Assembly (NCBI GenBank): GCA_021738105.1 | Contig: JAIPCS010000048.1 | Location: 1 to 17,504, forward strand | Direction: 5' to 3' | Length of the DNA: 17,504 bases | From: Sulfuritalea sp. | GTDB lineage: Bacteria > Pseudomonadota > Gammaproteobacteria > Burkholderiales > Rhodocyclaceae | In this document: positions 6,869 through 14,135 of the stretch, one piece after another | Layout of the letters: every line of letters starts with the position of its first letter | Numbering within the stretch: the first letter of the stretch is position 1 | The notes under the pieces: generated by a model | Database searches by the model: none | What the model was told of the DNA's origin: nothing | The model's input: the letters and a program-made list of their open reading frames with translations, nothing else | Position numbers and translations under genes: made by a program

Positions 6869-8419
6869 TCAGAACAGGCGCGGACCGGGCATCCCGGATG
6901 ATTTTGTGCCATTGGTGGATTGCATGCCTACAATGACCTCGCTGCCTTCCTTGATGTCACCGGATGCGATCTCGGTCATGCTGCCGTCGGTAAGCCCGAG
7001 GCGAACTTCGATCGCTTTCGGTTTGCCATCGGTGGCGACAACCCAGACACGTCCACTACCGCCGCCGCCGCCGGCGCGAGCAGCCTGGGCCGCGCTGGCC
7101 ATTTCATCGTAGAGTTTCTTTTGCTCAGGAGTGAGAATGACTGAAACTTTCTCGCGAATCTCGGCACGATTACGTTCCTGCGCCTTGGATTTTTCTGCAT
7201 CAGGCAGGTCGCGTGCTGCGCGAAACTTGTCGCGCATGCCGGCAAAAATGGAGTCAAGTTTGCCCTGCTGATCATTGTCGAGTTTAAGATCGGCAACCAG
7301 TCGTTCGCGCAACTGGGCAAGACTGCCCCGACCACTAGACGCGTTGTTGCCAGCGTTACTGCCACTAAAACTCGGCGTTGGTGACACGGCGGGAGTCGCA
7401 CCCTTTTCGTCAGTTCGACCGGGTGGGCGAAAGCGTAGTGAAGCGTTGGGCACCTTGAGTGCTCTTTCCTTTTGCGCCGTGATGATACGCACATTCGCGG
7501 TCATGCCGGGAAGCAACGTGAGCTCCGGGTTATCTGCTGAAACCACCACGGTATAGGTGACGACATTGGAGACTACGGTTGCCGCCTTGCGCACTTGCAT
7601 GACTTCGCCTTCAAAGTGACGGCCGGCAAAAGCGTCTACCGTAAAGCTGGCCTTTTGGCCCTTGTGGATACGTCCGACATCTGCTTCGTCAATCGAAGTT
7701 TCCACTTGCATGTCGGACAGATTTCTGGCGATAACAAACAACTCGGGAGACTGCAGACTGGCGGCAACAGTTTGTCCCGGTTCGATACTGCGCTTGACCA
7801 CAATGCCATCAACAGGGGCTTTGATGGCAGTGCGTTCGAGATCGATTCGCGCTTGCGCCAGTTGTGCCTGGCGCTGGCGCACCTGCGCCGAGCTGTTTCT
7901 GGCTTGCGCTTCGGCGACCAGGACGGCGGCACGGCCGGCGTCATAATTCGATTGCGCCTTGTCGCGTTCAGCCGATGACAGAAAATTTTTCTCGACCAGC
8001 AGCTTTTTGCGTTCAAAGTCACGCTGCAATTCAGCCAGATTGGCTTTGGCGCGCATCACTTCGGCTTGCTGCACGCCAAGTGCCGCTTGAGTCGCCTCGA
8101 CATCGGCCTCAGCCTGTCGCACTCTGTACTGAAATGTTTCCGGATCGATGCGAGCAATCAACTGGTCTTTTTTCACCGGCGAATTGAAGTCGACCAGGAT
8201 TTCCTTGATTTGCCCCGACACTTGAGAACCGACCTGCACCGAAACCACCGGGTTCAGGGTACCAGTAGCAGAGACGGCCGATGTGAGCGGGCCGATTTCA
8301 ACCTTGGCAAGTTTGTAGCGCAGGGTATCGCTCGCGCCAGAATACGAGCGGAAGGCGAAGCCGCCGGCAGTGGCCAATGCCACGATTCCTGCCAGGATAT
8401 ACATTGCGCGTTTATTCAT
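6869..8419 (-). CDS. macA: MacA-like periplasmic adaptor with a Spy/CpxP-like insertion
   Basis: A 516-residue HlyD/MacA-type membrane-fusion protein. A single N-terminal anchor (about 7-25) is followed by the lipoyl half-motif region (60-92, ending IARIDPE), a long alpha-hairpin (about 95-195) and the second lipoyl half (198-232, APVDGIVVKR). The beta-barrel (about 236-330) follows. The membrane-proximal part is split by about 120 extra residues. At 333-365 is a Pro/Gly/Ser/Asn linker. At about 366-443 are two or three charged helices with LKLDNDQQGKLDSIF and VILTPEQKKLYDEM, resembling the LTxxQ repeats of Spy/CpxP chaperones. A poly-Gly linker (450-456) then leads to the conserved GRVWVV strand. 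MacA homologues are normally about 370-400 residues. It begins the adaptor-ATPase-permease operon. The Shine-Dalgarno is weak. Confidence 0.88.
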   Translation of the reverse strand: MNKRAMYILAGIVALATAGGFAFRSYSGASDTLRYKLAKVEIGPLTSAVSATGTLNPVVSVQVGSQVSGQIKEILVDFNSPVKKDQLIARIDPETFQYRVRQAEADVEATQAALGVQQAEVMRAKANLAELQRDFERKKLLVEKNFLSSAERDKAQSNYDAGRAAVLVAEAQARNSSAQVRQRQAQLAQARIDLERTAIKAPVDGIVVKRSIEPGQTVAASLQSPELFVIARNLSDMQVETSIDEADVGRIHKGQKASFTVDAFAGRHFEGEVMQVRKAATVVSNVVTYTVVVSADNPELTLLPGMTANVRIITAQKERALKVPNASLRFRPPGRTDEKGATPAVSPTPSFSGSNAGNNASSGRGSLAQLRERLVADLKLDNDQQGKLDSIFAGMRDKFRAARDLPDAEKSKAQERNRAEIREKVSVILTPEQKKLYDEMASAAQAARAGGGGGSGRVWVVATDGKPKAIEVRLGLTDGSMTEIASGDIKEGSEVIVGMQSTNGTKSSGMPGPRLF

Positions 8420-8492: not shown

Positions 8493-9218
8493 CTAGTCGG
8501 CAATGGTGAAGCTGATCTCCTTGGCCAGCGATCCGTGATTGAAGTCACCCCACTCGGGGTCCCCATCGATGTTTCTTGCGTGAATGCGCCATGTATAGCT
8601 ACCCCCGGGCTTAAGCAATCCCGGAGGTAGCTTGAAAAAATTGTCCTTGATAATTTTGGTTTTCAGCAAATAGCGTTCGCTTTCCCACTCATCGCGCAGA
8701 TACACCTGATAGAAGGCAGCACCGGGAACAGGATCCCATCGTAGTTCAGTCGGCATGGGAATATTTTCAGCGCCAGCCGGTGGCTGCGGATTGCTTGCAA
8801 ACGGTAATAGTTTACGAAGAACATGGTCGCGGGCTTCAAATTTTCTGCCATCTTTCATGGTGATGCGGGCGCTGTACCAACCTTCCGGATTTTCGTTGGG
8901 TATCCCAAAGTGAGCTATGAGCACCCGCTTTTCCTCCTTGCCCGGTTCATCGACGACGCGATAGCGTTTTGGGTCGAACAGTCCCATGGTGCTTCCATTC
9001 GGGGTGAGTAGTTCTATGCGGGCGATATCATTGAAATGTTTGGTGGAGAACAAGGCCATTAGAAACAGTGGCTGATCCGGCCAGTTGCAGACGTGGATGT
9101 CAAAAAAGCCGGCCTCGGTATAGTGCGGATCCTTGTCCGATGTGGCGGCGAAAACCTGCAAGGTGAGAACGGTGAGGATTCCTAGCCCCATCACACGGAA
9201 GCAAGACAGTTGTTTCAT
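8493..9218 (-). CDS. Secreted hypothetical protein with FN3-like C-terminal domain
   Basis: A 241-residue protein with a signal peptide (residues about 1-25, cleavage near VFA-AT). The middle region (about 30-135) is of unknown fold, beginning YTEAGFFDIHVCNWPDQPLF. The C-terminal section (about 150-241) reads like a fibronectin type III or similar beta-sandwich: LRWDPVPGAAFYQVYLRD, then LPPGLLKPGGSYTWRIHARN, ending in a FTIAD strand. Only one Cys remains after cleavage. It probably acts in the periplasm or outside. The ATG overlaps the stop of the cyclic-nucleotide-binding gene (ATGA), so it belongs with that gene and the HEAT-repeat transporter. I cannot name a function. Confidence 0.78.
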   Translation of the reverse strand: MKQLSCFRVMGLGILTVLTLQVFAATSDKDPHYTEAGFFDIHVCNWPDQPLFLMALFSTKHFNDIARIELLTPNGSTMGLFDPKRYRVVDEPGKEEKRVLIAHFGIPNENPEGWYSARITMKDGRKFEARDHVLRKLLPFASNPQPPAGAENIPMPTELRWDPVPGAAFYQVYLRDEWESERYLLKTKIIKDNFFKLPPGLLKPGGSYTWRIHARNIDGDPEWGDFNHGSLAKEISFTIAD

Positions 9219-9670
9219 GGTTTCTCCTTTTCAGCATGCAAGGCATCGTTCGCATTGCGCAGGCGCAGGCTCATACCGTGAAGCAGACCCAAGGCAATGT
9301 GCGGGTACGAAAGCAGCAAGTCGTGAAGTTTGTCGCGGTTCAGCGATAGCAGTTCGACATTTTCGATCACGCGGGCTGTGGCCGAGCGGGGCTGACGGTC
9401 AAACAGGCCCATTTCGCCAAAAGCCTCTCCCGGCCCAAGAGTGCTGGCAACGTATTCACTTTCGCTTTCACTATCGAGCACGATCTCGATGAGTCCCGAG
9501 CGTACGATATACATTCGGTCGGCGACGTCTCCGCGACAGAAAACTTCCTCACCAGCGACATAGACCTCGTCTCGCAATTGTTCGGCCACTACGCGCAGGT
9601 CTTCGAGCGGCACCGCGGCGAATACTCGACTTTTTTTCAGCAGCAACAGGTGTTTGAAAAATCCATCCAT
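9215..9670 (-). CDS. Cyclic-nucleotide-binding-fold protein (single domain)
   Basis: A 151-residue protein made almost wholly of one cNMP-binding beta-roll (about 13-125). It contains AGEEVFCRGDVADRMYIVRSG (39-59) and a phosphate-binding cassette GEAFGEMGLFDRQPRSATA (81-99) in which FGE and Arg95-Ser96 match the residues that hold the cyclic phosphate. There is no HTH, so it is not a CRP/FNR transcription factor. No membrane segment is present. I chose the ATG at 9670, which shares one base with the transporter stop (TGATG) and has GGAG eight bases upstream. In-frame starts upstream (9682, 9706) lie inside the transporter gene. It is likely the cytosolic sensor subunit of the neighbouring HEAT-tailed transporter. 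Binding of cAMP or cGMP is inferred. Confidence 0.85.
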   Translation of the reverse strand: MDGFFKHLLLLKKSRVFAAVPLEDLRVVAEQLRDEVYVAGEEVFCRGDVADRMYIVRSGLIEIVLDSESESEYVASTLGPGEAFGEMGLFDRQPRSATARVIENVELLSLNRDKLHDLLLSYPHIALGLLHGMSLRLRNANDALHAEKEKP

Positions 9671-12282
9671 CAATAACTCCATTGCGCCGCACAGGACGCT
9701 AGCCATACATCTTTGCCGTTGCGAAGCTTTGTGATTGCGCTGGCCAGACTCGGTTCAGCCTGCTGTGCCATGTTTGCGGTTTGCGAGGAGAACAGCGCGT
9801 GCAGGACGAGTCGTGTGGATTTATCGGCAACCAGGGCGATGGCCTCATTGCAGCGGGCCCTGAGACGCAGGTCCGTGCTGTCGAGGGCCGCGTACAGCGT
9901 TCGCGCGAGATCCTGCAAATGACCGTGGCCGAGTGCGACAAAGCCCAGCCGGCGCAGGTCGAGTGCGCGTTCATTGAGCGCCGTTTGCAGCAGTTCGCCT
10001 GCAGGGTCGACCACGGCGACGAGTCGTTGCGAGATCCGGGTGTATTCGGCAGCTTGCTGCGCATAGCACTCGGCAAACGCTCGCATTGCGCTGCTATCCG
10101 ACTGCGTGGCAAGAATGTTCAGCGCGCATTCCTGTCCGCGCGGTCCCAGCGAACCATCCTCGAGCGATCTTTCAATCAGGTGCCGATAGCTCTCGAGGTT
10201 CTTTACGCACAATGCCGCCGTCGCGCCAGCGCCGACTTTTGGATGCGGGGTATTGAGAAGACGCAACAAAAGCGGAAACTGTTCTGCCTCTGGTAATCGG
10301 GTGATTACGGCAAGTAGTGTTGCTTGTCCCGCTGCATCGAAAGTGACCGGCAGGAGGTGGGCCAGGTCGGCAGCCAAGTCCGCTGGCAAGATCTGCTGCT
10401 GCGCGGCAATAGCATCCAGTAGGGATGATGTGGCGTCGGGGGTGTGCGCAGCCTTTAGGGACTCGAGCAGCAAGGGCAGTGCCGCCGGATTTGGTGCGAA
10501 CCTGAGAACAGTCAGAATTGCGCGGCGAAGGGCAATATCGCCTCTCATCAGATCCTCACGCAAGCTCTGCAGAGCATCAGGGTCGGGATTGTCCGTTAGC
10601 ATGGCTACCTTGCGGCAGGCGATCAGACGCGAATGGCTTTGGCTTACGGCCGGGCTGATACGATCCCAGGGAAGTGGCCAGCCGTGACGTAGCCCGATTG
10701 TCAGCGCACTGGCCTGGGAATGTATGTCGCCGGCGAGCAGTGTGGCATAGAGAATGTCGCGCTGATGCGCTTCCAATCTTGGCGCTGCAGCATGCGCCAG
10801 GCGGTCGCGCAGCGGCACCGGCAGTGTTGACAGACGGTTCAGGATGGGTTCGATCGCAATTGTCGGGAAATGCGCGAGGAGGACCCGGGCTGCATTTTCC
10901 ACGCTAGATAGATCCTCGGTCTGAAGCTGTCGCAGAAGTTCGTCGGCCAGTCGATTGTCTCCGCGTTGGTTCCAGCCGGAAAAACTCTCGGGGGCAACAA
11001 AGTGGCGTTCCCTCAGGGTATCCAGCAGCGCTAAGCCATACGCCCGATTCGCGCGCCACGAGTACCAAAGACACAGCAACGCTGTCCCTATTCCGACCAG
11101 GGTGATGGCGGTAGTCGACACCTGCAAAAAATAGAGAATCAGACCGGAGCAGATCATACCCAGCGGGATCATGATTACCAGGGCCAGGGCTCGAGCGCGG
11201 CCCTGCATGGTGTCCGGCAGCGCTTGCAGCATCAGCGCTCGCACCGGATTGCGCACCGCGGCGAGCAGCACATAGCGGTTGTAGGCGGCGGCTGCGGCGG
11301 CGGTCAGCGCCCACGGTGTCAACAGGGCCAGCAGCGCGCTTAGCAGTGTTAGGGGGAACACCAGATTCATTGCCCTCAGTCCGAAGCGTCGAATCAAGGC
11401 CGGCATCAGCCCTGATTGCAACAGGAAGGCACTGGCACCACTCACCAGAATGATCAGGCCGTACGTCTCGGCGAGCTTGTCGGCATCGGAGAATGCCCGC
11501 GCGAACGTACCTTTGAACAGGTAGGCTGAGATGAACAGCCCAATCAGAGCGAACAACATCGCCAACGATGTGTACGCCAACAAGGGCGAGCGGCGCAGGA
11601 ACTGAGCACCCTGGTGCAACTGACGCAAGGTTTGCGCCCAGGGTCGACTACGCGGTGCCGCACGAAATCTCCCAACCTCGCTGCGATGTCGGAGCAGTAT
11701 CAGTACCAGTGCCAGGCCGATGAACAGGGGCCACAGTAACACGATGAAGTCCGATCCCAGGCGCGGTGCGAGCAGAACCAGGGCAATGCCGCCGAGCATT
11801 TCACCGACCGGACTGCCAGCGGTGGCTATGGGCACCAGACGCTTTGCTTGCTCGCCGTAGAAAGTGGCGCCAATGTACAGCGTCGCGTGCATCGTCAGTA
11901 TTTCGGAAACTGTCTGGTACAGCAGATATACCGCGCCCCAGACGATATCAGGCGCTCCGGCCTGGGCAGCCAGCCACAAAACCAGGACGCCGACGACCGT
12001 AGCCCCGAGCATCGCCATCATTACGCGTTGTGGAGAATGCCGGTCGGCAACGGACGCATAGACCAGGCTGCACAGGCTCAGGGTAACACCCTGGATCAGG
12101 AATACTACGGGCAGATAGTCGATCCCGTAGCGATTGAGGAACAAGGTGTTGGATATCCCGCGTCCTATCGATAAGCCAACGCTGATCAGCAGTAGCAGCA
12201 GGAAAAAATACGGCATATCCATTCCGCTGGAACGTAGTTTGCCAGTGCTAGAGAACAGAGCGGAAAGGCGCGTAATCAGCAT
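9670..12282 (-). CDS. Transporter-like membrane protein with HEAT-repeat tail (Npt/MFS type)
   Basis: An 870-residue protein in two halves. Residues about 24-410 hold 10-12 hydrophobic segments with features of the ATP/ADP-translocase (Npt/Tlc)-like branch of the major facilitator fold: SIGRGISNTLFLNRYGIDYLP near 38-58 and the loop SVADRHSPQR at 77-86. Residues about 440-870 are soluble and built of short amphipathic Leu/Ala helices typical of HEAT or PBS-like repeats (for example RRAILTVLRFAPNPAALPLL and LDLRRLGFVALGHG). Related proteins often also carry a fused cyclic-nucleotide-binding domain; here that domain is the next, overlapping gene. The substrate is unknown and nucleotide transport should not be assumed. 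The start at 12282 is 67 bp after soxB with no terminator between, so co-transcription is possible. A second Met at 12222 (MDMPYFFLL) has a slightly better upstream context. Confidence 0.82.
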   Translation of the reverse strand: MLITRLSALFSSTGKLRSSGMDMPYFFLLLLLISVGLSIGRGISNTLFLNRYGIDYLPVVFLIQGVTLSLCSLVYASVADRHSPQRVMMAMLGATVVGVLVLWLAAQAGAPDIVWGAVYLLYQTVSEILTMHATLYIGATFYGEQAKRLVPIATAGSPVGEMLGGIALVLLAPRLGSDFIVLLWPLFIGLALVLILLRHRSEVGRFRAAPRSRPWAQTLRQLHQGAQFLRRSPLLAYTSLAMLFALIGLFISAYLFKGTFARAFSDADKLAETYGLIILVSGASAFLLQSGLMPALIRRFGLRAMNLVFPLTLLSALLALLTPWALTAAAAAAYNRYVLLAAVRNPVRALMLQALPDTMQGRARALALVIMIPLGMICSGLILYFLQVSTTAITLVGIGTALLCLWYSWRANRAYGLALLDTLRERHFVAPESFSGWNQRGDNRLADELLRQLQTEDLSSVENAARVLLAHFPTIAIEPILNRLSTLPVPLRDRLAHAAAPRLEAHQRDILYATLLAGDIHSQASALTIGLRHGWPLPWDRISPAVSQSHSRLIACRKVAMLTDNPDPDALQSLREDLMRGDIALRRAILTVLRFAPNPAALPLLLESLKAAHTPDATSSLLDAIAAQQQILPADLAADLAHLLPVTFDAAGQATLLAVITRLPEAEQFPLLLRLLNTPHPKVGAGATAALCVKNLESYRHLIERSLEDGSLGPRGQECALNILATQSDSSAMRAFAECYAQQAAEYTRISQRLVAVVDPAGELLQTALNERALDLRRLGFVALGHGHLQDLARTLYAALDSTDLRLRARCNEAIALVADKSTRLVLHALFSSQTANMAQQAEPSLASAITKLRNGKDVWLASCAAQWSY

Positions 12283-12349
12283 TCAGGATCTAGATCAATG
12301 TAAATACCTTCATTTTCTAAGCGTGACTGTGGATACTTGCTGATAATGC

Positions 12350-14068
12350 TCAGGCGAGCCCAGGGTTGCCCTTCACGCCCACAAGCTTGGGTACATTGAC
12401 CCTGCGTGCGCTGACAAGTTTTTTGTCTTTGAGCCAGCGTCCAACGACATCCCACACCGGTTCGCCCGTTGACGACGGGTCTACCGTCGCCCATCCGGCC
12501 ACTTTGTAAATTTTATCTGCTGCCATCGGTTTGTCATTGATGCGCATGTCTGAAATACGACGTCCTGCCGGTGCATTGGGGCTGCAGGTGTAGTTCATGC
12601 CGCCAACGCGGATCATGTCACCGCCCTGTTGGTAGTAAGGGTCTGGGTTGTAAAGGTTGTCGGCGATATCTTCCAGAATTTCCTTGATGCGCTGGCCCTT
12701 CATCTCGTTCAAGGTCGAGTAAGGGTAAGTGATGGCGGTTTGATCCATCAGATGTTCGAAAGTGATCGCGCTGCCCGGCAGCAAGGTGGTCCCCCAGCGA
12801 AAGCCAGGTGAGAAACCGATATCAGCGCCCTTGACGTCCATGATGGCATCCAGAATCAGTTGGTCCCAACTGCCATTGAAGTTGCCGCGTCTATAGAGAA
12901 GACCTTCCGTGACGGCAAGCTGTTCCTCCAGCTTTGCTTGGTGTGGAGCACGCACTTTTTCGATATAAGCCGCCATTTCGGTGTCGGCCGGTAACAGATT
13001 GGAGAAAACCGGCAGAAGCTTGTAGCGAAAATCCTGAACTTTGCCGCCGCGAACGTCGAAGTCGAGTACGGCAAGGAACTTGCCGTTGGAGCCCGCGTTG
13101 GTGACCAGTGTTTGGCCGCCAGCGTTTTTCACCGTAATCGGCTGCGGCACGCCGTCATGCGTGTGACCGCCCATGATGGCATCGATGCCGGTAACACGCG
13201 TTGCCATCTTGAGGTCTACATCCATGCCATTGTGGGAAAGGACGACAACAACTTTCGCACCTTTGGCACGTACTTCGTTGACCATCTTTTGCATGTTTTC
13301 GTCCTGGATGCCAAAGGTCCAATCCGCAATCATGTAGCGCGGGTTGGCGATGGGTGTGTAGGGGAACGCCTGTCCGATCACCGCAACTTGCACGCCATTC
13401 ATTTCGCGCATGGCATAAGGTGGAAAAACCGGGTCGCCGAAATCCGTGGTCTTGACGTTCTGGGCGAGGAATTCGATCTTGCCCTTCAAGTCCTTCTCGA
13501 CGATTTCCAATACGCGTTTGTCGCCCAGAGTGAATTCCCAGTGCGCCGACATCATGTCGACACCGAGCAGCTTGCAGGCATCCACCATGTCCTGCCCTTT
13601 GCTCCACAAAGCAGTGGCCGAGCCCTGCCAGGTATCGCCGCCGTCAAGCAAGAGCGCACCCGGGCGCTGGGCTCGCATTCGTTTGACCAGTGTCGCAAGG
13701 TGGGCGAAGCCGCCGACCTTGCCGTAGGTTTTTGCCGCCTCGGTGAAATCGAGATAAGTGAAGGCGTGCGCTTCGCGCGTTCCGGGCTTGATGTTGAAGG
13801 CCTTGAGAAGGTGTTCGCCGACCAGATGGGGTGCTTTTCCGAAGGCGCCGCTGATACCGAGATTGACGCTCGGCTCACGAAACCAAATCGGCAGCAGTTG
13901 CGCGTGGCAGTCGGTGAAGTGCATGAAATGCACGTTGCCGAATGTTGGAAGTTCGTACAAAGCGTCTGCGTTTTCGGCCGCCAGAAGCGACCGAGAGTCT
14001 AGGGCAACTCCGGCAACCGATGCGGCGGCCAGCATTTGCAGAAATTCGCGGCGGTTCATAGAGGACAT
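12350..14068 (-). CDS. soxB: SoxB, thiosulfohydrolase of the Sox pathway
   Basis: A 572-residue periplasmic dinuclear-Mn hydrolase. It releases sulfate from the SoxY-bound cysteine S-thiosulfonate. The N-terminus has a Tat-type signal (NRREFLQM at residues 5-12, then a hydrophobic Ala-rich stretch). The metallophosphoesterase/5'-nucleotidase-like motifs are FTDCHAQLLP (51-60), LLLDGGDTWQGSA (139-151), SAHWEFTLGD (174-183), a VVLSHNGMDVD stretch and GGHTHDG. The start at 14068 (MSSMNRREF) has GAGG eight bases upstream. The open frame extends to 14119, but that extension runs through an intrinsic terminator and is not plausible coding. It is the last gene of the sox cluster, after soxX. Confidence 0.96.
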   Translation of the reverse strand: MSSMNRREFLQMLAAASVAGVALDSRSLLAAENADALYELPTFGNVHFMHFTDCHAQLLPIWFREPSVNLGISGAFGKAPHLVGEHLLKAFNIKPGTREAHAFTYLDFTEAAKTYGKVGGFAHLATLVKRMRAQRPGALLLDGGDTWQGSATALWSKGQDMVDACKLLGVDMMSAHWEFTLGDKRVLEIVEKDLKGKIEFLAQNVKTTDFGDPVFPPYAMREMNGVQVAVIGQAFPYTPIANPRYMIADWTFGIQDENMQKMVNEVRAKGAKVVVVLSHNGMDVDLKMATRVTGIDAIMGGHTHDGVPQPITVKNAGGQTLVTNAGSNGKFLAVLDFDVRGGKVQDFRYKLLPVFSNLLPADTEMAAYIEKVRAPHQAKLEEQLAVTEGLLYRRGNFNGSWDQLILDAIMDVKGADIGFSPGFRWGTTLLPGSAITFEHLMDQTAITYPYSTLNEMKGQRIKEILEDIADNLYNPDPYYQQGGDMIRVGGMNYTCSPNAPAGRRISDMRINDKPMAADKIYKVAGWATVDPSSTGEPVWDVVGRWLKDKKLVSARRVNVPKLVGVKGNPGLA

Positions 14069-14089
14069 CTTGATACCTCGGGAAGAACA

Positions 14090-14116
14090 TAAAAAAGGCC
14101 TGACCGAGGTCAGGCC
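14090..14116 (-). terminator. Intrinsic terminator between soxX and soxB
   Basis: Read on the minus strand, GGCCTGAC pairs perfectly with GTCAGGCC around the tetraloop CTCG, followed directly by TTTTTT. The stem lies 20 bp after the soxX stop and ends before the soxB Shine-Dalgarno. An 8-bp GC-rich stem plus six T's is a textbook Rho-independent terminator. It should end many transcripts after soxYZAX and lower or decouple soxB expression. Confidence 0.85.
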
Positions 14117-14135
14117 CATGGTGCAGTAGGCAGCC

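What the first reader, a model, noticed from the sequence alone, without database searches (positions are those of the whole stretch)
8493..12282. Split HEAT-tailed transporter, cyclic-nucleotide sensor and secreted FN3 protein in one overlapped unit
Seen: three minus-strand genes joined by TGATG and ATGA overlaps encode a multi-helix transporter-like protein with about 430 residues of HEAT-like repeats, a lone cNMP-binding domain with an intact phosphate-binding cassette, and a signal-peptide protein ending in an FN3-like domain. Established: related Npt/MFS-HEAT proteins are often fused to a cNMP domain. Inference: here the sensor is a separate coupled subunit docking on the HEAT tail, and the secreted protein is a periplasmic partner, giving a second-messenger-gated membrane system. 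The unit lies 67 bp after soxB with no visible terminator.
Basis: partly seen in the sequence, partly recalled or inferred. Interest (0 to 1): 0.75.

Follow-up and report, generated by a model that had tools for sequence, protein, structure and literature searches.

The report
Cyclic-nucleotide-controlled transporter unit with secreted partner
Three neighbouring bacterial genes that tend to travel together encode a nucleotide-transporter-like membrane protein, a separate cyclic-nucleotide receptor and a secreted protein of an unnamed family, and they probably form one membrane machine switched by a cyclic-nucleotide signal.

Summary
Three minus-strand genes joined by TGATG and ATGA encode an 870-aa MFS-HEAT protein, a lone cNMP domain with an intact phosphate-binding cassette, and a signal-peptide protein with two Ig/FN3-like sandwiches. 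The linkage is real: MFS-HEAT and cNMP genes lie beside the secreted gene in 42 of 52 relative loci (40 by a fixed rule), and in 37 junctions MFS-HEAT and cNMP genes are at most 15 bp apart. In a 274-genome sample the secreted family and this MFS-HEAT subfamily occur together in 8 genomes, each alone in one. Three relatives fuse the cNMP domain to the HEAT tail, which supports a detached receptor subunit. The membrane domain has an NTT (ATP/ADP translocase) fold, but the ADP-binding lysine of plastid NTT1 is missing in 35 of 35 aligned proteins. Class III cyclases lie within 5 kb in 15 of 52 loci (0.55 expected). NTT-HEAT plus adjacent or fused cNBD is already published (Major et al. 2017); my searches found no print on the secreted third member or the cyclase link. 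Ligand binding, transport and a physical complex are not shown. Sox genes adjoin the unit in only 4 of 52 loci and the window.

The parts
9670..12282 (-). MFS-HEAT membrane protein gene, 870 aa (NTT-fold transporter domain plus alpha-solenoid)
   Evidence: family profile matches NTT1 structures; fold of the relative L009
11008..12282 (-). membrane domain, residues 1-425
   Evidence: alignment A5 of 35 proteins; profile match to NTT1 E 5.7e-5
9673..10965 (-). HEAT-like alpha-solenoid, about residues 440-870
   Evidence: HEAT_2 weak; profile hits to alphaRep and HEAT structures; helical pairs in the model of L009
9668..9672 (-). TGATG stop/start overlap, MFS-HEAT to cNMP
9215..9706 (-). lone cNMP-binding protein (likely start at 9670)
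   Evidence: PF00027 8e-25
9377..9421 (-). phosphate-binding cassette FGEMGLFDRQPRSAT
   Evidence: Glu and Arg kept in 39 of 39 unit cNMP domains examined, window included
9215..9218 (-). ATGA overlap, cNMP to secreted protein
8493..9218 (-). secreted two-domain Ig/FN3-like protein of an unnamed family, 241 aa
   Evidence: 459 proteins at E <= 1e-3, itself included; no Pfam or NCBIfam; model
9147..9218 (-). signal peptide, about residues 1-24
   Evidence: read from sequence; low pLDDT at residues 1-5 and 18-27
8820..9125 (-). N-terminal sandwich with GFFDIHVCNWP signature
8496..8786 (-). C-terminal FN3-like domain
12283..12349 (-). 67-bp gap after soxB without terminator-like site
12350..14119 (-). 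soxB, upstream neighbour (likely true start near 14068, by eye)
   Evidence: TIGR04486 883 bits

Best explanation
The three genes encode one membrane unit. The 870-aa protein is an MFS transporter of the NTT (nucleotide translocase) lineage whose substrate is probably not the classical ATP/ADP pair; its HEAT tail is a cytoplasmic scaffold. The small cNMP protein is a detached receptor subunit that docks at the end of the HEAT tail; binding of a cyclic nucleotide, most likely cAMP from class III cyclases that in some relatives lie beside the unit, changes the solenoid and so gates transport. The secreted two-sandwich protein is a periplasmic partner (substrate-handling or docking subunit) of the same unit. 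Shown: the genes, their linkage and co-occurrence, the fusions, the cassette, the NTT fold of a relative, the cyclase neighbourhood. Inferred: docking, gating, ligand, transport, and the place of the secreted protein.
Confidence: 0.58

Rival explanations
1. The MFS-HEAT protein no longer transports: it is a membrane receptor (transceptor), the secreted protein senses a periplasmic signal, and the cNMP protein is the cytoplasmic output.
For: ADP-site lysine absent in 35 of 35 aligned proteins; the window protein also lacks D45, K50 and E267, kept in 27, 33 and 32 of 35; the secreted protein is strongly conserved (30 invariant columns in 40 sequences).
Against: Charged residues of the membrane domain stay invariant in 35 of 35 (D80, H132, K147, R148, H199, R362) and the AKR motif is shared with NTT1, which argues for retained transport; no output domain beyond cNMP.
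Confidence: 0.15
2. It is the published NTT-HEAT plus cNBD pair acting as a cAMP-tuned nucleotide carrier, and the secreted protein is a passenger in the operon.
For: Major et al. 2017 proposed cAMP tuning of ATP uptake (passages); G147 and four other NTT-HEAT pairs (L108, L109, L110, L112) have no secreted gene in the fetched stretch.
Against: The secreted family tracks this subfamily across the sample (8 of 9 each way) and in five genomes is kept although unlinked to it; the ADP lysine is absent.
Confidence: 0.17
3. The unit belongs to thiosulfate oxidation: it moves a sulfur compound or sulfate for the Sox enzymes, switched by a second messenger.
For: sox genes upstream in the window, L001 and L018; soxYZ downstream in L005 and L038; soxB over cut-off in 38 of 49 carrier genomes against 104 of 265 non-carriers of the class sample (Fisher 7e-7).
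Against: 48 of 52 loci have no sox gene in the fetched flanks, L042 counted here although it has a 23%-identity SoxB-like stretch (many flanks are short); G007, a 2.6-Mb single contig, carries the parts without a soxB over the cut-off; carriers may simply come from sulfur-rich habitats.
Confidence: 0.08

Closest known systems
NTT-HEAT and NTT-HEAT-cNBD proteins (Major, Embley and Williams 2017, PMC5381601; passages seen)
   Same: NTT-type membrane domain, HEAT tail, cNBD either fused or encoded a few nucleotides downstream
   Different: The passages seen mention no secreted third gene, linked cyclase or sulfur oxidisers; the window protein has no PF03219 hit and lacks the ADP-site lysine
AtNTT1 / Chlamydia NTT1 ATP/ADP translocases (PDB 9j3j, 9j3l, 9j3m, 9j3n, 9j3o)
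   Different: No HEAT or cNBD; canonical lysine present there, absent here
SLC9C1, cAMP- and voltage-gated Na+/H+ exchanger
   Same: Secondary transporter with a cytoplasmic cNBD; top Foldseek rows of the L009 model; gating shown there (PMC10651576, passages)
   Different: Global TM only 0.11-0.13, so not the same fold; cNBD fused, voltage sensor, no HEAT (recalled)
MFS transporters with fused regulatory domains, CNBD included (review PMC10710835, passages)
   Same: Same design idea
   Different: Here the receptor is a separate gene and a secreted protein is linked

Membership tests
NTT nucleotide translocases | NTT fold / sequence kinship | tested here: met
NTT nucleotide translocases | ADP-binding lysine (K155 of AtNTT1; role from PMC3306366, passages; its mapping to the TKD motif is recalled) | tested here: not met
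   Ala 23, Ser 6, Thr 6 of 35; Ser in the window
NTT nucleotide translocases | nucleotide exchange activity | not testable with these tools
   needs a transport assay
NTT-HEAT with linked cNBD (Major 2017) | HEAT tail C-terminal to NTT domain | tested here: met
   (weak)
NTT-HEAT with linked cNBD (Major 2017) | cNBD fused or encoded nucleotides downstream | tested here: met
   TGATG in window; 37 junctions -37 to +15; fusions L009, L046
cyclic-nucleotide-binding domains | cassette Glu and Arg | tested here: met
   39 of 39: the window and 38 of 52 loci; the other 14 loci, whose gene just upstream was not labelled or not called, were not examined
cyclic-nucleotide-binding domains | binds a cyclic nucleotide | not testable with these tools
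   needs calorimetry
FN3/Ig-like secreted proteins | beta-sandwich fold | tested here: met

The most novel reading that the evidence does not exclude
A three-part, cyclic-nucleotide-gated transport complex that spans the envelope: NTT-fold carrier with HEAT neck, detachable cAMP receptor, and a periplasmic Ig/FN3 subunit of a new family, moving an anionic substrate other than ADP/ATP, mostly in sulfur-oxidising proteobacteria, under neighbouring CHASE2-type cyclases.
Probability: 0.3. Interest if true: 0.72.

Novelty: new variant of a known kind. Interest (0 to 1): 0.55.

Why it matters
NTT-HEAT and NTT-HEAT-cNBD proteins are found in chlamydiae, cyanobacteria and oomycetes, and the 2017 paper says the functions of these fusions are unknown (passages). 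Here nature supplies a two-gene version, cyclases beside it in some relatives and a secreted partner, so the question 'does a cyclic nucleotide gate this carrier, and what does it carry' becomes testable with small soluble parts.

Tried and rejected
Own-genome search: none held. Secreted protein against solved structures by sequence: one match, E 0.83. MFS-HEAT by single sequence: eight matches at E 0.02 to 0.94, taken as chance or designed repeats. Papers joining the terms of this unit: none. brought the papers cited and a few unrelated or merely related ones that I did not open. Preprints and most subscription journals are not in that library.

Considered and dropped: an exclusive link to Sox (48 of 52 loci without sox in the fetched flanks); soxB as universal companion (11 of 49 carrier genomes not over cut-off; some show only partial matches: G006 and G038 cut at a contig edge, G009 and G023 partial). 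Rows dropped: loci L052 and L054-L057 as spurious partial matches (E 2e-5 to 4e-4), 3 of 12 genomes (G094, G241, G271; E about 1e-4 or weaker), 34 of 43 genomes, best 204 bits or less, taken as other MFS/NTT proteins. G028 counts as secreted-only in the sample because its unit (L029) starts at a contig edge. Of the 15 cyclase loci, L053's two genes lack the motifs sought, L041 is weak (E 4e-5) and L010 is cut; without L053 and L041 it is 13 of 52. Alignment A4 held 21 of the 23 members of that cluster plus one ABC transporter (L008) by mistake; 15 of its 22 rows have PF00211 and 5 have TPR domains, the rows not being named. No baseline for cyclases in non-carrier genomes was taken. The 'class' sample has soxB over cut-off in 112 of 274, so it may not be typical of proteobacteria at large.

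Full report
What is there. Three minus-strand genes fill 8493-12282. The first, 870 aa, is a multi-helix membrane domain (about 12 helices in the model of the relative L009) followed by about 430 residues of helical repeats; the second, 163 aa as listed (151 aa from the TGATG start), is a single cNMP domain (PF00027, 8e-25); the third, 241 aa, looks to have a signal peptide and has no Pfam or NCBIfam family. Junctions are TGATG and ATGA. Upstream lie soxY, soxZ and soxB (NCBIfam), a SoxA/TsdA-type cytochrome and another cytochrome c, which I call soxA and soxX by Pfam and position. Downstream is a macAB-like pump.

Conservation. The secreted protein has 459 proteins at E <= 1e-3, itself included, 120 listed; 40 of those aligned show 30 invariant columns and the signature GFFDIHVCNWP. 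Its profile found 57 loci in genome contigs, 52 of them genuine, in 49 genomes. MFS-HEAT and cNMP genes lie beside it in 42 of 52: 40 by a fixed tblastn rule, plus L016, where the secreted gene comes first, and L021, a contig-cut HEAT-cNMP fusion. Among these L017 has the secreted gene divergent and L027 has two called ORFs between. The other ten: L007, L020 and L034 have the cNMP gene beside it but no MFS-HEAT; L006, L014, L015, L037, L041, L047 and L053 have neither. L041 and L047 are second copies in genomes that also hold a unit (L032, L029). In the genomes of L006, L007, L014, L015 and L037 an MFS-HEAT match of 340 to 628 bits lies elsewhere: beside a cNMP gene in four, and in G007 (one 2.6-Mb contig) beside LolA and MMPL genes. 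The genomes of L020, L034 and L053 show none; L020 and L034 are on contigs that end before the transporter would appear.

Sample count. In 274 genomes drawn from the class of G016 (Sulfuriferula multivorans, L017), 9 hold the secreted family (3 stray matches dropped) and 9 the MFS-HEAT subfamily at over 400 bits, the next match being 204 bits. Eight hold both (Fisher 1e-13). Seven of the nine secreted-family carriers were already in the discovery set, so this is not fully independent. G147 has the pair without the secreted gene; G028 has the secreted gene with the transporter cut by a contig edge.

Split and fused. The MFS-HEAT to cNMP gap is -37 to +15 in 37 junctions, window included. In L009 the two are one 1048-aa protein, in L046 one 747-aa protein with a shortened tail (only PF00027 passes in Pfam), in L021 a HEAT-cNMP chain cut by the contig; all three are followed by the secreted gene. 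So the separate cNMP protein is the same part, detached. More distant MFS-HEAT proteins show the same pairing, the cNMP gene on either side (L108, L109, L110, L112).

Signal. The Glu and Arg of the cassette are present in 39 of 39 unit cNMP domains examined (window and 38 of 52 loci; four have Leu or Ile in place of the Phe). A class III cyclase lies within 5 kb of the secreted gene in 15 of 52 loci; 0.55 were expected from 183 PF00211 matches in about 137 Mb of 49 carrier genomes. By simple pattern 13 of them show the N..R motif and 10 the lysine typical of adenylate cyclases (motifs recalled). CHASE2, DUF5939 and dCache-HAMP types occur. All 49 carrier genomes hold a class III cyclase, against 5 of 14 named control genomes; non-carriers of the sample were not tested. 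Nine loci carry beside the unit (eight upstream, L042 downstream) a LolA-like protein and a 913-921 aa protein that in L013, the one scanned, is an MMPL transporter with its own C-terminal cNMP domain. cAMP is therefore the likeliest ligand. A protoglobin-GGDEF gene near L028 and GGDEF-like genes near L025 (by eye) leave c-di-GMP open as a second input.

Sox. soxB is over cut-off in 38 of 49 carrier genomes against 112 of 274 in the sample; in the sample 8 of 9 carriers are over the cut-off and the ninth, G009, has a partial match of 471 bits. Sox genes adjoin the unit in the window, L001 and L018, and soxYZ follow in L005 and L038; 48 of 52 loci have none in the fetched flanks, but only 19 of 52 loci span 20 kb. 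In the window a hairpin with a T run lies between soxX and the likely soxB start, with similar sequences by eye in L001 (weaker) and L018, so soxB may be read with the unit rather than with soxYZAX; the number of terminator-like sites in the scanned stretch is no more than shuffles give (7 against 6.7). G007 carries the parts without a soxB over cut-off. A bias toward sulfur oxidisers is supported, an obligatory role in thiosulfate oxidation is not.

Known or new. Major et al. (PMC5381601, passages) described NTT-HEAT proteins followed within nucleotides by a cNBD, their fusions, and the idea of cAMP tuning. A review (PMC10710835, passages) lists CNBD fusions of MFS carriers. The secreted partner and the cyclase linkage did not turn up in the searches. 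I rate it a new variant of a known kind.

Noticed in passing
window 14096-14117: Intrinsic-terminator-like hairpin (9 pairs, then TTTTTT) between soxX and the likely start of soxB at about 14068; similar sequence at the same place in L018 and, weaker, in L001 by eye. soxB may be transcribed with the transporter unit.
   Followed up: partly
L013:2502-6772, also L012, L019, L022, L024, L036, L042, L048, L049, L113: LolA-like protein plus an MMPL transporter with a C-terminal cNMP domain (Pfam run on L013 only), in most of these loci with a 189-aa membrane coiled-coil protein, near the unit or its MFS-HEAT gene: a second transporter that looks cyclic-nucleotide-controlled.
   Followed up: partly
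L007 and L113 (G007): In one single-contig genome the set is broken in two: cNMP, secreted gene and a cyclase in one place, LolA, MMPL, coiled coil and MFS-HEAT about 1.7 Mb away by record coordinates, less round the circle if it is closed.
   Followed up: yes
L006, L014: Secreted gene beside three small related genes; the two scanned in L006 match DUF2173; Thiobacillaceae and Thiobacillus records.
   Followed up: no
L028:4650-5699: Protoglobin-GGDEF protein upstream of the unit.
   Followed up: no
window 6869-8419: MacA/HlyD-like adaptor seems to carry a helical, CpxP/Spy-like insert with an LTPEQKK stretch before its last domain (motif recalled, not searched).
   Followed up: no
L010, L048: My ORF calls are broken inside the unit (MFS-HEAT in two pieces in L010; cNMP not called in L048 although tblastn finds it); draft errors, decay or a fault of my caller.
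   Followed up: no
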